From Acidobacteriota bacterium (lineage in GTDB: Bacteria > Acidobacteriota > Terriglobia > Terriglobales > Acidobacteriaceae): a DNA stretch of 64,000 nucleotides. The position numbers and the translations under genes were made by a program. Below the pieces are notes generated by a model. It was not told the DNA's origin. It saw only the letters and a program-made list of their open reading frames with translations, and ran no database searches. The number at the start of each line of letters is the position of its first letter. Position 1 is the stretch's first letter. The DNA lies in NCBI GenBank assembly GCA_021780075.1, contig JAJXZL010000036.1:146717-210716 (forward strand). The letters run 5' to 3'. Below are positions 12,336 through 19,099 of the stretch, piece by piece.

Positions 12336-12896
12336 CTACAGGAAGATGGCCTGTTTTGACTCGCTCATCATCTGGATGAAAGATCCGACGCCGACGTAGT
12401 CGAGGTTCGGATAGTCAATCATCTCTTCTTCCTTGAGCCCCATTACGCCCAGCGACATCTCACATACGTGGATGCGCACGCCGAACTCGCCTGCCTCTTT
12501 CATGAGCTGTTCAAGCGACTTGACACCGTGCGACTTCATAACGGAGCGAATCATCTTGGGCCCTATGCCGCCCATCTGCATCTTGGAGAGGGGTAGCGAC
12601 CGCGAGCTGCGCGGCAGCATCCAGCCAAACATTTTGTCCAGCATCTTCTTGCGCGGCGCTTTCCTGGAATCGCGAAGAGCGGCGGTTGCCCAGAAGGTGA
12701 AGAACATGTCCACTTCGATGTCATAGGCCACGGCGCCGAGGGCGATGATAAAGGCCGCGATGGTTGTATCGAGGTTGCCGCTCATCACGCCGATCGAGAG
12801 CCTGTCGTTGCCGGCAGATTTCTCGAGTGCGTCAACGCGTTCTGTCAACCTTTCGATTGTCTCTTGAAGTTGGAAATCTATCGGTGCGGTGATCAT
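12336..12896 (-). CDS. DsrE2-like DsrE/DsrF/DrsH family protein
   Basis: LSIGVMSGNLDTTIAAFIIALGAVAYDIEVDMFFTFWATAALR...VRIHVCEMSLGVMG. Confidence 0.85.
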   Translation of the reverse strand: MITAPIDFQLQETIERLTERVDALEKSAGNDRLSIGVMSGNLDTTIAAFIIALGAVAYDIEVDMFFTFWATAALRDSRKAPRKKMLDKMFGWMLPRSSRSLPLSKMQMGGIGPKMIRSVMKSHGVKSLEQLMKEAGEFGVRIHVCEMSLGVMGLKEEEMIDYPNLDYVGVGSFIQMMSESKQAIFL

Positions 12897-12931
12897 GGTC
12901 GGGTTTCCTTTCAAAGCTACGGTCATCGTGG

Positions 12932-14110
12932 CTATGCTTCAGCGCCGACTGATGCGGCAGCCTTGGCCGGCGCATTGCGCCACGCAAAGAGCGCAAGCGC
13001 CAACGTGCGATAAAGCACATGAGCGAACTTGGTAAGCGGCAGCATGGCGACGAGGTCCATGGCTAATACAACGTGCGCGAAAAAGATGTCGTGGCCGAGC
13101 GTTGCGGGAGAAGGCAGATAGACAATCACCTCGCAGAAGAGGCCGGTAAGAACCGTTGCTGTGAGCAGGACTGGAAAAAACCAATCAGCGAAGCTGCTCT
13201 TTTTATATGGGTGCTCTTTTCCCTGTGCACGGCGCAGCAGGACAATGGACAGGCCATAAAGGCAGACGAGACCGCCAACGGCGCCAAGAATTCGCGTCAG
13301 ATACCAGGGCTGAACTACAGAGCCGATGGGTTTGAACATAAAGTCCAGAGTGGTAGCGAGCAGCATGGCCAGAAAGCCCCCCATGACGGAAGCGTGTACA
13401 AGCCACGGTCTCTGATGCCAGGGTTGCGCCGCAAGTTCTTGTGTGGTGGCGTCAGCATCGCATTGCCCGAAGCGGCGATGCGTGAGCGCATCCGACAGTG
13501 CGCTATAGACGGCACCGGGGATAGCGGCAATGCTAAGCGCATCGCCTTCTCTCACACGCTTCCGCCAGAAGCGCCACACCATGGACGCAATGCCAGAGGC
13601 GGCGCTGAGGCCGACGACGGAAAACAGCACCACGCCGATATTGTGAATCCATTCACCGGGCAGGAAATGAAAGAGCGGCAGGTCAGGACCACCGGCGTTC
13701 ATTCTGGTAAGGAGAAGCGCAGAAAAGATCGCCGAGAACAAGCCGAAGACAAACAAGTTGCCAAGCACAGAGCGATTGGCCAGGGCAGCCAGCCCGGTAA
13801 AGTCATAACGCGCGATGGCATAGCTGCGCGCAGCGGCCATGAATGCCGCCGGATCAGCCTGGCGCGGACAGGTCTGCGTACATTCACCGCATGCGTAACA
13901 GCGCCATAGCTCTTCGCTGGCCAGCAGATCCTGCTCCATGCCTACCTGGGCCATGCGGATCACGCGCCGTGGAAAGCCACCGGAGTCCTCCGCGAGGGGG
14001 CAGACAGCGGTACAGTTGCCGCAGTTGAAGCATGCACTGATGTCAAGCTTCCTGCCTGCTCCATGCTTTTTAATTTTCTGTAAAAGGGACGTATTCACAA
14101 CGCGTGCCAT
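12932..14110 (-). CDS. qmoC-like: QmoC-like protein (HdrC-type 4Fe-4S domain fused to HdrE-like membrane cytochrome domain)
   Basis: CFNCGNCTAVCPLAED and CYACGECTQTCPRQADP motifs followed by multiple TM helices. Confidence 0.85.
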   Translation of the reverse strand: MARVVNTSLLQKIKKHGAGRKLDISACFNCGNCTAVCPLAEDSGGFPRRVIRMAQVGMEQDLLASEELWRCYACGECTQTCPRQADPAAFMAAARSYAIARYDFTGLAALANRSVLGNLFVFGLFSAIFSALLLTRMNAGGPDLPLFHFLPGEWIHNIGVVLFSVVGLSAASGIASMVWRFWRKRVREGDALSIAAIPGAVYSALSDALTHRRFGQCDADATTQELAAQPWHQRPWLVHASVMGGFLAMLLATTLDFMFKPIGSVVQPWYLTRILGAVGGLVCLYGLSIVLLRRAQGKEHPYKKSSFADWFFPVLLTATVLTGLFCEVIVYLPSPATLGHDIFFAHVVLAMDLVAMLPLTKFAHVLYRTLALALFAWRNAPAKAAASVGAEA

Positions 14111-14129
14111 GCTGTTACCTCTCCCGGTG

Positions 14130-14447
14130 CTAGTGACTGGCCTCTGCCGCTTCTTGCTGGACGACCAGCGCATACAGCGGATAGTCGCCTTCCTCGCCGG
14201 CTTCAGCGACCTTGCCGTACTTGCGCATGCCCGTGACATGCCAAAGCGCTTCGCTGGAGGGAAGTTGCAGCGCCTCGGCAATCTGCGGAACAGTGGCAGG
14301 TTTTGCTTCAAGAAACTTAAGTATGGCCTTGCGTGCAGCGACCAGGTGCTTTTGCGCTTGTCGCTTTTGCTCGCTGATACCGCCGAGAGAGGCGCGCAGC
14401 TTTGCCAACGCCTGCTTTTGCTCGGGAGCGAGTGTTTTCATCGCCAT
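14130..14447 (-). CDS. Small winged-helix-like protein of unknown function within the Qmo/Hdr-like operon
   Basis: 105 aa; ATVPQIAEALQLPSSEALWHVTGMRKYGKVAEAGEEGDYPLYAL; located between qmoC-like and hdrA-like. Confidence 0.7.
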   Translation of the reverse strand: MAMKTLAPEQKQALAKLRASLGGISEQKRQAQKHLVAARKAILKFLEAKPATVPQIAEALQLPSSEALWHVTGMRKYGKVAEAGEEGDYPLYALVVQQEAAEASH

Positions 14448-14480
14448 GTTGTATTTCCTCTCTGGCCTGGTGGTGCGCCG

Positions 14481-17826: not shown

Positions 17827-18323
17827 TACAGACCCCCCTGCAGAGCGGGCGCGAGGTCCAGGGCGCGCACGGAGCCCTGCAGGCGATTCAGTGATTCGCG
17901 CCGCAACTGCCCAGCCAATTTGCGATCAACCCGACCAAGCCGATACAGATTGTCGCTCATGAGCGCAATTTCCTTGAGGAACGCCTTGATGCAGACCGTA
18001 CAGATGGCCGTCAGGCGGATCCGTTCGATGCCCAGTCCCCCAGCGTTCATGTGCGAAGTGAGTTGGTCGATGCGTGCGGCCAGTTGCTCATACGCACCGT
18101 GATACGGGCAGTCCGATCCGCAGGCGGCAATCAGGACGCCATCGATTCCCTTCCCGTAGCAGTCAAGATAGAAGTCTTCAGGAAAGAGCACCGGCGAAGG
18201 CACGCGCAGGATGTATACGTTAGACGGATACTCCTGGTGGGCCTTGCCGACTGCGTCGGCCCCCGGATAGGCACATTTCTCGGTGGCCAGCACCAGAATC
18301 TTTGGAACAAACGCCTCGCTCAT
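17826..18323 (-). CDS. mvhD-like: MvhD/FlpD-like hydrogenase delta subunit family protein
   Basis: ATEKCAYPGADAVGKAHQEYPSNVYILRVPSP...AACGSDCPYHGAYEQL...TAICTVCIKAF. Confidence 0.88.
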   Translation of the reverse strand: MSEAFVPKILVLATEKCAYPGADAVGKAHQEYPSNVYILRVPSPVLFPEDFYLDCYGKGIDGVLIAACGSDCPYHGAYEQLAARIDQLTSHMNAGGLGIERIRLTAICTVCIKAFLKEIALMSDNLYRLGRVDRKLAGQLRRESLNRLQGSVRALDLAPALQGGL

Positions 18324-18415
18324 CCTGCACCTCGCATCTGCATCGCCGTAGTTGGCGATGGGTTTCCGCCGGTCCTGGCGGACCGGCAGTCTTCTTTCCA
18401 CTTCCGGGAACGAAC

Positions 18416-18667
18416 TTATTTCTTGCGGCACACGAGAATGCGGTCGTGTCCTTCAGCTTCAACGATGCCCAGAAACTCGTGACCCACTTTGCCGGCCCAT
18501 GCGGTGATGTCCTTGCGCGAGCCCTTGTCGTTGGATTTGATTTCGATGATCTGACCCACTTTCACTTGGCCGATGCCCTTCTTGGCTTCAAGCAGGGGGC
18601 CCGGGCATGCTGTTCCCCGTGCATCGATGATTTTGTCGGCTGTAATTGTGGCAACTGCTGCACTCAT
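18416..18667 (-). CDS. tusA-like: TusA family sulfurtransferase
   Basis: IIDARGTACPGPLLEAKKGIGQVKVGQIIEIKSND; CPxP motif. Confidence 0.93.
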   Translation of the reverse strand: MSAAVATITADKIIDARGTACPGPLLEAKKGIGQVKVGQIIEIKSNDKGSRKDITAWAGKVGHEFLGIVEAEGHDRILVCRKK

Positions 18668-18709
18668 GGAATTTCTCCCCATTACTGTGTGCGACCCTGC
18701 GGATCGAGG

Positions 18710-19099
18710 TCACACGGGTTGAAGAACGGTAGCCAGCCTCCGCCGGGATGGGCGGAGCGATGCTTGCTCCGCTTCATGACGCAAACGGTCGAATAGCGCT
18801 TCTCGAATCAGGATTGCCGCTTCAACAAAGCGCGGATCGGCGATATGGTAGTAGACATTCTGTGCGCGCTTTTCAGCGATTACGGCGCCCCGGTCGCGCA
18901 TCAGTCGCAGATGCTGTGAGACGTTGGTGATCGACACACCAGCATCTATGGCAATCTCCGTGACGGTCTTGGGCTGCCCTTGCAATGCGCAGAAGATACG
19001 CATGCGCGTGGTGTGTGCGAAGGTGGCGAAAAAGTCGCCAAGCATTTCGCAGGATGCATCTGTCATGGGTTGCTTCACCCGGCTTCTCCTCACTGCCAT
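18710..19099 (-). CDS. ArsR family transcriptional regulator
   Basis: HTTRMRIFCALQGQPKTVTEIAIDAGVSITNVSQHLRLMRDRGAV winged-helix. Confidence 0.9.
   Translation of the reverse strand: MAVRRSRVKQPMTDASCEMLGDFFATFAHTTRMRIFCALQGQPKTVTEIAIDAGVSITNVSQHLRLMRDRGAVIAEKRAQNVYYHIADPRFVEAAILIREALFDRLRHEAEQASLRPSRRRLATVLQPV

What the first reader, a model, noticed from the sequence alone, without database searches (positions are those of the whole stretch)
12336..19099. Qmo/Hdr-like sulfur redox operon: ArsR-TusA-MvhD-QmoA-HdrA-wHTH-QmoC-DsrE2, with no HdrB, AprAB or DsrAB in view
Seen: eight co-directional genes with short spacers encode two HdrA-type flavoproteins, a stand-alone MvhD/FlpD, a QmoC-like HdrC-HdrE membrane fusion, and the sulfur carriers TusA and DsrE2. 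Established: QmoABC normally links APS reductase to the quinone pool, and sHdr systems use HdrC1B1A-HdrC2B2 with LbpA. Inference: this mixture suggests a membrane-linked, possibly electron-bifurcating complex that exchanges electrons between protein-bound persulfide (TusA/DsrE2/TusE) and menaquinone, distinct from canonical Qmo and sHdr.
Basis: partly seen in the sequence, partly recalled or inferred. Interest (0 to 1): 0.85.

Follow-up and report, generated by a model that had tools for sequence, protein, structure and literature searches.

The report
TusA-linked Qmo-like sulfur redox complex
This eight-gene operon of a soil Acidobacterium encodes a membrane electron-transfer complex that probably takes electrons from protein-bound sulfur; the same gene block recurs in bacteria of many phyla and in some archaea, but I found no paper that describes the block as a unit or shows what it does.

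Summary
Eight minus-strand genes (19099 to 12336) encode ArsR, TusA, stand-alone MvhD, QmoA- and QmoB-like HdrA halves, a small winged-helix protein, QmoC and a DsrE2-family protein. The genome (99.5% complete) lacks AprA, Sat, DsrA, LbpA and a matching HdrB.

It is not a one-off mixture. A search on MvhD alone returned 80 loci; TusA lies beside it in 78, and the order TusA-MvhD-QmoA-QmoB-wHTH-(QmoC or HdrC+HdrB)-(DsrE2) spans over a dozen phyla, including archaea. QmoA and QmoB each form one clade; joining them to AprA-linked Qmo is rejected (p-AU 0.0006, 0.0017). The nearest published idea is 'type II Qmo', of unknown function; I could not compare sequences with its reference members.

New here: a second operon 17 kb away, ArsR2-SQR(type III)-DUF1641-TusE-DsrE2, shares a promoter design and an ArsR operator found nowhere else in the genome. 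This favours an oxidative role: sulfide to SQR to TusA/TusE/DsrE2 to the Qmo-like complex to menaquinone, product probably sulfite. The catalytic site, direction and product are inferred; bifurcation is untested. New variant of a known kind.

The parts
18710..19078 (-). ArsR/SmtB-family repressor (ArsR1); Cys17 and Cys37 in the numbering from ATG 19099; both are present in ArsR2 and in the G273 ortholog
   Evidence: Pfam HTH_5/HTH_20; NCBIfam ArsR/SmtB subfamily 66.4 > 55 bits; start at GTG 19078 by Shine-Dalgarno and by alignment to ArsR2
18416..18682 (-). TusA sulfur carrier, active-site Cys26 in CPGP
   Evidence: PF01206 70.3 bits; beside MvhD in 78 of 80 loci
17826..18323 (-). stand-alone MvhD/FlpD variant; Cys108, Cys144 and Cys147 (numbered from GTG 18431) invariant in the module
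   Evidence: PF02662 67.2 bits; model matches MvhD-type chains of Hdr complexes, TM 0.81-0.84 by target; alignment A5
16513..17826 (-). QmoA-like half HdrA: FAD domain plus inserted 2x[4Fe-4S] domain; no GltD/NfnB insert
   Evidence: aligns to HdrA 142-562; cluster ligands conserved; clade 100/100
14481..16496 (-). QmoB-like half HdrA: N-terminal domain, FAD domain, C-terminal 2x[4Fe-4S]; no MvhD domain
   Evidence: aligns to HdrA 1-236 and 312-652; clade 100/99
14130..14447 (-). small winged-helix protein, no Cys; present in nearly every module locus that runs on past QmoB
   Evidence: AlphaFold pLDDT 88, winged helix; best Foldseek hits SmtB/ArsR fold, E 2e-4
12932..14110 (-). QmoC-like: HdrC 2x[4Fe-4S] domain plus a membrane cytochrome-b domain with six hydrophobic segments; invariant His239, His346, His364
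   Evidence: Pfam Fer4 and Nitrate_red_gam; NCBIfam qmoC 178 bits, below the 300 cut-off; A1; hydropathy
12336..12926 (-). DsrE2-family sulfurtransferase, single Cys155
   Evidence: PF13686 150 bits; NCBIfam DsrE2 55 bits, below the 210 cut-off
19161..19174 (-). Crp/Fnr-type box GTGACAGCTGTCAC, 22 bp upstream of the -10
   Evidence: box-22bp-TACACT occurs twice in the genome, at ArsR1 and ArsR2
19133..19138 (-). candidate -10 TACACT
   Evidence: same spacing at ArsR2
19107..19122 (-). candidate ArsR operator TTGCGTGATTGCGCAA
   Evidence: TTGCGNGATTNCGCAA occurs twice in the genome, at the two ArsR promoters
1..1083 (+). second operon of the same regulon: type III sulfide:quinone reductase (start lies upstream of the window)
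   Evidence: full protein from L144: NCBIfam type III SQR 643 > 525 bits
1011..1787 (+). DUF1641 protein of the second operon
   Evidence: PF07849 22.7 bits
1791..2108 (+). TusE-type DsrC-family protein, single penultimate Cys
   Evidence: PF04358 125 bits; sequence ends AKKAAKIAGLPKPKGCI
2099..2590 (+). second DsrE2-family protein
   Evidence: PF13686 106 bits

Best explanation
The operon encodes a membrane-bound TusA-dependent sulfane-sulfur:quinone oxidoreductase. A TusA persulfide, loaded through DsrE2 and TusE, docks on the cytoplasmic MvhD-QmoA-QmoB part; electrons released from the sulfane sulfur pass through the flavins and Fe-S clusters of QmoA and QmoB to the HdrC domain of QmoC, then through its b-type cytochrome domain to menaquinone. 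In this organism the flow is probably oxidative: a co-regulated type III SQR turns sulfide into sulfane sulfur and this complex oxidises it further, most likely to sulfite, which is exported or assimilated. ArsR1 and ArsR2 repress both operons until sulfane sulfur is sensed, and a Crp/Fnr-type activator switches them on. Shown: gene content, conserved order, intact cluster ligands, separate ancestry from AprA-linked Qmo, shared unique promoter motifs. Inferred: complex formation, TusA as substrate carrier, quinone as acceptor, direction, product, and the two regulators' roles.
For: TusA beside the module MvhD in 78 of 80 loci chosen on MvhD alone. All HdrA Fe-S ligand cysteines of QmoA and nearly all of QmoB conserved in the module. 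QmoC keeps 8 Fe-S cysteines, invariant histidines and six hydrophobic segments. Separate clades, nesting in canonical Qmo rejected. No AprA, Sat or DsrA, so no canonical Qmo partner. The ArsR1 and ArsR2 promoters share a Crp/Fnr box, a 22-bp spacer, TACACT and the operator TTGCGNGATTNCGCAA, each found only at these two sites in 3.88 Mb. ArsR2's operon carries a type III SQR above the curated cut-off, TusE and DsrE2. In Hyphomicrobium, TusA is proposed to feed the Hdr-like complex, sulfite is the product and ArsR-type sHdrR/SoxR repress it (PMC6067878, PMC12423496).
Against: No biochemical data. This complex has no CCG (HdrB) subunit, the proposed catalytic site of sHdr, so where sulfur would be oxidised is unknown; the MvhD C-S/T-V-C motif is only a candidate. 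The promoter link rests on one genome; relatives have GTGAN6TCAC boxes near the operon but not the same arrangement. Some carriers are sulfate reducers or a sulfur disproportionator, where the flow could be reductive. ArsR1 lacks the second Cys position reported for sHdrR/SoxR.
Confidence: 0.55

Rival explanations
1. Reductive version of the same complex: menaquinol, helped by proton-motive force or a low-potential donor, reduces TusA-bound sulfane sulfur to H2S, so it is a sulfur or polysulfide respiration module.
For: The module also occurs in sulfate reducers (Desulfofundulus, Desulfoscipio, Desulfotruncus) and Thermosulfurimonas dismutans; most QmoA carry a GltD/NfnB-type NAD(P)H insert that would allow pyridine-nucleotide-driven reduction.
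Against: Here the co-regulated partner is an SQR, so reduction would be a futile cycle; the window QmoA lacks the NAD(P)H insert; menaquinol to persulfide is uphill.
Confidence: 0.2
2. Sulfane-sulfur homeostasis or detoxification: the complex keeps the TusA/TusE/DsrE2 thiol-persulfide pool at the right redox state, without being a growth-supporting pathway.
For: Present in aerobic heterotrophs such as Actinotalea lenta and Cellulomonas; next to CoA-disulfide-reductase-rhodanese and MoeB-rhodanese genes; ArsR control.
Against: A full quinone-reactive membrane complex is a large investment for homeostasis; it does not explain the DsrE2/TusE relay and SQR pairing better than energy metabolism does.
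Confidence: 0.17
3. A canonical QmoABC that lost its AprAB partner and now serves another reductase.
For: Same three-subunit logic; two same-genus genomes (G007, G345) have aprA-linked QmoABC.
Against: Joining module QmoA or QmoB with AprA-linked QmoA or QmoB is rejected (p-AU 0.0006, 0.0017); AprA-linked QmoC forms its own 100/100 clade; G345 has both systems in one genome.
Confidence: 0.03
4. Electron-bifurcating complex that couples persulfide and menaquinone to ferredoxin or NAD(P)H.
For: HdrA-type flavin with intact ligands; MvhD subunit; most relatives carry an NAD(P)H domain.
Against: The window version has no NAD(P)H insert, and no low-potential partner (hydrogenase, formate dehydrogenase) was seen in the operon; HdrA-like flavoproteins need not bifurcate.
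Confidence: 0.15

Closest known systems
Type II Qmo (Neukirchen et al. 2023, PMC10504309; Chernyh et al. 2020 as cited there)
   Same: QmoAB closer to HdrA than to bacterial QmoAB; QmoC present; [quoted passage not shown] function unknown
   Different: The main text mentions no MvhD or winged-helix gene and TusA only in general terms; reference sequences (Vulcanisaeta moutnovskia, Ammonifex degensii) could not be compared here
Canonical QmoABC (type I, AprA-linked)
   Same: Two HdrA-like flavoproteins plus a HdrC-HdrE-type QmoC; tail can be replaced by HdrBC
   Different: No AprAB or Sat; MvhD separate and carrying a C-S/T-V-C motif; QmoA retains the HdrA Cys61; separate clades; TusA, wHTH and DsrE2 in the operon
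sHdr (hdrC1B1A-hyp-hdrC2B2 with LbpA)
   Same: HdrA-type protein, TusA and DsrE-type carriers, ArsR control; a small gene lies between hdrA and hdrC2, as the wHTH lies between QmoB and HdrC/QmoC (positional likeness only)
   Different: No HdrB, no LbpA, membrane QmoC instead, split HdrA
HdrABC-MvhADG / Elp-Hdr of methanogens
   Same: HdrA, MvhD and HdrC parts; MvhD model TM about 0.8 to the MvhD-type chains in 5odc and 8rvu
   Different: No HdrB, no hydrogenase; HdrA split in two
YTD cluster (YedE-TusA-DsrE)
   Same: TusA with a DsrE-family protein
   Different: No YeeE/YedE in this genome; contains the Qmo-like complex

Membership tests
Canonical (type I) QmoABC | AprAB and Sat in the genome | tested here: not met
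Canonical (type I) QmoABC | QmoA and QmoB nest with AprA-linked QmoA and QmoB | tested here: not met
   p-AU 0.000644 and 0.0017
Canonical (type I) QmoABC | MvhD domain fused to the QmoB C-terminus | tested here: not met
   MvhD is a separate gene; QmoB ends after the ferredoxin domain
Canonical (type I) QmoABC | QmoC above the NCBIfam equivalog cut-off | tested here: not met
   178 bits against 300
Type II Qmo | QmoAB closer to HdrA than to type I QmoAB | tested here: met
   module QmoA with HdrA 99/95; module QmoB its own clade apart from AprA-linked QmoB
Type II Qmo | groups with the published V. moutnovskia and A. degensii sequences | not testable with these tools
sHdr | two HdrB (CCG) and two HdrC subunits with one HdrA | tested here: not met
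   no CCG protein in the operon; the three in the genome lie elsewhere
sHdr | LbpA lipoate-binding protein | tested here: not met
   single GcvH beside two glycine-dehydrogenase (gcvP) subunit genes
sHdr | TusA and DsrE-type carriers linked | tested here: met
YTD cluster | YeeE/YedE transporter | tested here: not met
   no PF04143 in the genome
DsrE2 (NCBIfam equivalog) | score above the equivalog cut-off | tested here: not met
   55 bits against 210; Pfam DrsE_2 is met
Sulfane-sulfur-sensing ArsR (BigR/SoxR/sHdrR) | conserved Cys pair (Cys50 and Cys116 in sHdrR) | tested here: inconclusive
   two Cys conserved in ArsR1, ArsR2 and the G273 ortholog, but both lie in the N-terminal third; BigR model 29.8 bits against 155

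The most novel reading that the evidence does not exclude
A widespread, unnamed class of TusA-dependent sulfane-sulfur dehydrogenases: two HdrA halves plus a remodelled MvhD form a persulfide-oxidising core that needs neither the non-cubane HdrB cluster nor LbpA, and is plugged into either a quinone-reactive QmoC or a soluble HdrC-HdrB tail, with an NAD(P)H module in most lineages. It would be a third cytoplasmic route of sulfane-sulfur oxidation beside reverse Dsr and sHdr.
Probability: 0.3. Interest if true: 0.87.

Novelty: new variant of a known kind. Interest (0 to 1): 0.72.

Why it matters
If the reading is right, many genomes without dsr, apr, sox or shdr still carry a sulfur-oxidising (or reversible) complex that annotation pipelines label only as HdrA, 'MarR regulator' or 'hydrogenase subunit'. 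It would give a function to part of the 'type II Qmo' group that a 2023 survey left open, offer a marker (TusA beside an MvhD with C-S/T-V-C, then two HdrA halves and a small winged-helix gene), and show how one flavin/Fe-S core is refitted with different electron exits.

Tried and rejected
Canonical Qmo relic: rejected by AU tests and by absence of apr and sat. sHdr: no HdrB pair, no LbpA. DsrC-linked Hdr (Flx-Hdr-like): the DsrC-family protein here has one Cys, so TusE. wHTH as a hidden redox subunit: the window copy has no Cys; fold search gives generic ArsR/SmtB winged helices, so regulator versus structural part stays open. MvhD model: only the known MvhD fold; Cys geometry could not be read. 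Insert/tail correlation: loci without the GltD insert all have QmoC (12 of 12, against 19 of 51 with it; Fisher p 5e-5), but the insert changes once on the tree, so there is one independent pair and it proves nothing. Operator motif: single hits in G394 and G121 have no ArsR or SQR homolog in the 3 kb around them and are taken as chance. One HdrA row in the first tree was a wrong ORF and was replaced. Literature: ten searches found no description of the block as a unit; only open-licence PMC papers were searchable.
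Full report
Observation. The eight genes are real and co-directional on the minus strand, with gaps of -1 to 92 bp. Domain scans confirm ArsR, TusA, MvhD, two HdrA-type flavoproteins, QmoC-like and DsrE2-family proteins; the winged-helix protein is a weak HTH_20 match. QmoA and QmoB are complementary halves of HdrA: QmoA covers residues 142-562 with the inserted ferredoxin domain, QmoB covers 1-236 and 312-652 with the C-terminal ferredoxin domain. The MvhD domain that ends canonical QmoB is here a separate protein.

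Whole genome. The genome is 99.5% complete. It has no AprA, no DsrA apart from an assimilatory sulfite reductase, no Sat, no YeeE/YedE and no other HdrA. Its single GcvH sits beside glycine-dehydrogenase genes, so there is no LbpA candidate. Its three CCG proteins lie elsewhere: a GlcF-type protein next to a GlcE-like gene, a membrane CCG protein next to electron-transfer flavoprotein genes, and a small LutA/YkgE-like one identified by size only.

Distribution. A QmoC search over 396 Acidobacteriota genomes, followed by the DNA around the best hits, showed the same gene order in several families. Of 19 operon-bearing genomes tested, three have AprA and four a strong DsrA match; the remaining 15 have neither. 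TusA lies beside MvhD in 78 of 80, although TusA was not used in the search; the winged-helix gene is found in 57 loci, a DsrE2-family gene in 60 and ArsR in 27, with several loci cut off by contig ends. The loci span more than a dozen phyla by name, including Bacillota isolates (Desulfofundulus, Desulfoscipio, Desulfotruncus), Actinomycetota isolates (Actinotalea lenta), Thermosulfurimonas dismutans and Acidilobaceae archaea. The electron exit varies: QmoC in 22 loci, HdrC plus a CCG (HdrB-like) protein in 32, a swap also known for canonical Qmo (PMC10504309). Most QmoA carry a GltD/NfnB-type insert; the window copy does not.

Phylogeny. Module QmoA forms one clade (100/100) and groups with methanogen HdrA (99/95). 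Module QmoB forms one clade (100/99) once two copies from variant loci, first labelled HdrA, are counted in. Forcing either into one clade with its AprA-linked counterpart is rejected (p-AU 0.000644 and 0.0017). AprA-linked QmoC is its own 100/100 clade, and module QmoC is not one clade, so the anchor has been exchanged repeatedly. The nearest module to the window's is in another genus (G273) and another family (G113), while a same-genus genome (G345) carries a different subtype plus canonical apr-linked Qmo, which suggests horizontal transfer.

Residues. The Fe-S ligand cysteines of HdrA are conserved in every module QmoA; in QmoB all but two of the ligand positions are invariant and those two are at 79-84%. 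Module QmoA keeps Cys61 of HdrA, which AprA-linked QmoA lacks, and module QmoB has a Cys-x-Cys at 69/71. The module MvhD has invariant Cys108, Cys144 and Cys147; the last two form a C-S/T-V-C motif where ordinary MvhD in the alignment has a Ser-Ala-Ala/Ser-Glu-Gly-type sequence. Its predicted fold is that of MvhD. The winged-helix protein folds confidently but resembles generic ArsR/SmtB proteins; its role is open. About a thousand homologous clusters exist, several called MarR or DprA-like by sources.

Regulation and a second operon. On the same contig, starting just before the window, lies ArsR2-SQR-DUF1641-TusE-DsrE2. ArsR2 is 81% identical to ArsR1. The SQR passes NCBI's type III SQR cut-off (643 against 525 bits). 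Both ArsR promoters carry a Crp/Fnr-type box GTGACAGCYRTCAC, 22 bp, TACACT, then TTGCGNGATTNCGCAA. Each pattern occurs exactly twice in the genome, at these two promoters. The patterns were drawn from the two sites, so the point is that no third site exists. In G345 three GTGAN6TCAC boxes lie between the module and the CoA-disulfide-reductase gene upstream of it, and G273 has one near its operon, against about 0.8 expected per 64 kb.

Mechanism. The most economical reading is that SQR makes sulfane sulfur from sulfide, DsrE2, TusE and TusA carry it, and the Qmo-like complex oxidises TusA-bound sulfur and reduces menaquinone. Sulfite is the likely product by analogy with sHdr, where TusA is proposed to deliver sulfur and TauE-type exporters release sulfite (PMC6067878, PMC12423496); a TauE/SafE gene lies at 21531-22343. 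Substrate docking, catalytic site, direction, product and the use of menaquinone are inference. The main weakness is the missing HdrB: either MvhD or a QmoAB cluster must host the sulfur chemistry, or this version only moves electrons for a reaction done elsewhere.

Known or new. Neukirchen et al. [quoted passage not shown] The window's module has that property, but I could not compare it with their reference sequences. Ten literature searches of an open-licence library found no account of the TusA-MvhD-QmoAB-wHTH-QmoC/HdrCB-DsrE2 block. The peatland Acidobacteria described earlier with dsr genes lacked sqr, tusA and dsrE2 (PMC6018796), so this organism is a complementary physiological type. 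I file it as a new variant of the Hdr/Qmo kind.

Noticed in passing
window 53322-54074 (+): Crp/Fnr-family regulator with an N-terminal CxxC...C cluster and a CRP-like recognition helix (TTRETVTRTL); a candidate activator for the GTGAN6TCAC boxes of both sulfur operons.
   Followed up: partly
window 46144-52359 (-): NapC/NirT-type cytochrome, an 869-aa protein without family matches that could be an outer-membrane barrel, and a DmsE-family decaheme cytochrome (259 > 192 bits): a possible extracellular electron-transfer conduit in the same window.
   Followed up: partly
window 9556-11280 (-) and L044:15900-17816: CoA-disulfide-reductase-like protein with a C-terminal rhodanese domain next to the module in the window and G345, and a weaker relative in G273; a PadR regulator gene is also nearby in the window and G345.
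   Followed up: partly
window 7518-9165 (-): MoeB-rhodanese and a second rhodanese-bearing ORF with closely similar C-termini, apparently a partial duplication.
   Followed up: no
window 11308-11658 (-): NifX/NifB-type iron-molybdenum-cofactor-binding protein between the CoA-disulfide-reductase gene and the module.
   Followed up: no
L117, L124, L128, L130: Actinomycetota and Acidobacteriota loci in which a QmoB-type open frame is about 1,370-1,400 aa long, suggesting fusion or frame read-through of QmoA and QmoB.
   Followed up: no
L049, L050 (G030, G016): Variant modules with QmoA-wHTH-QmoC together and, in L049, QmoB-MvhD a few kb away.
   Followed up: partly
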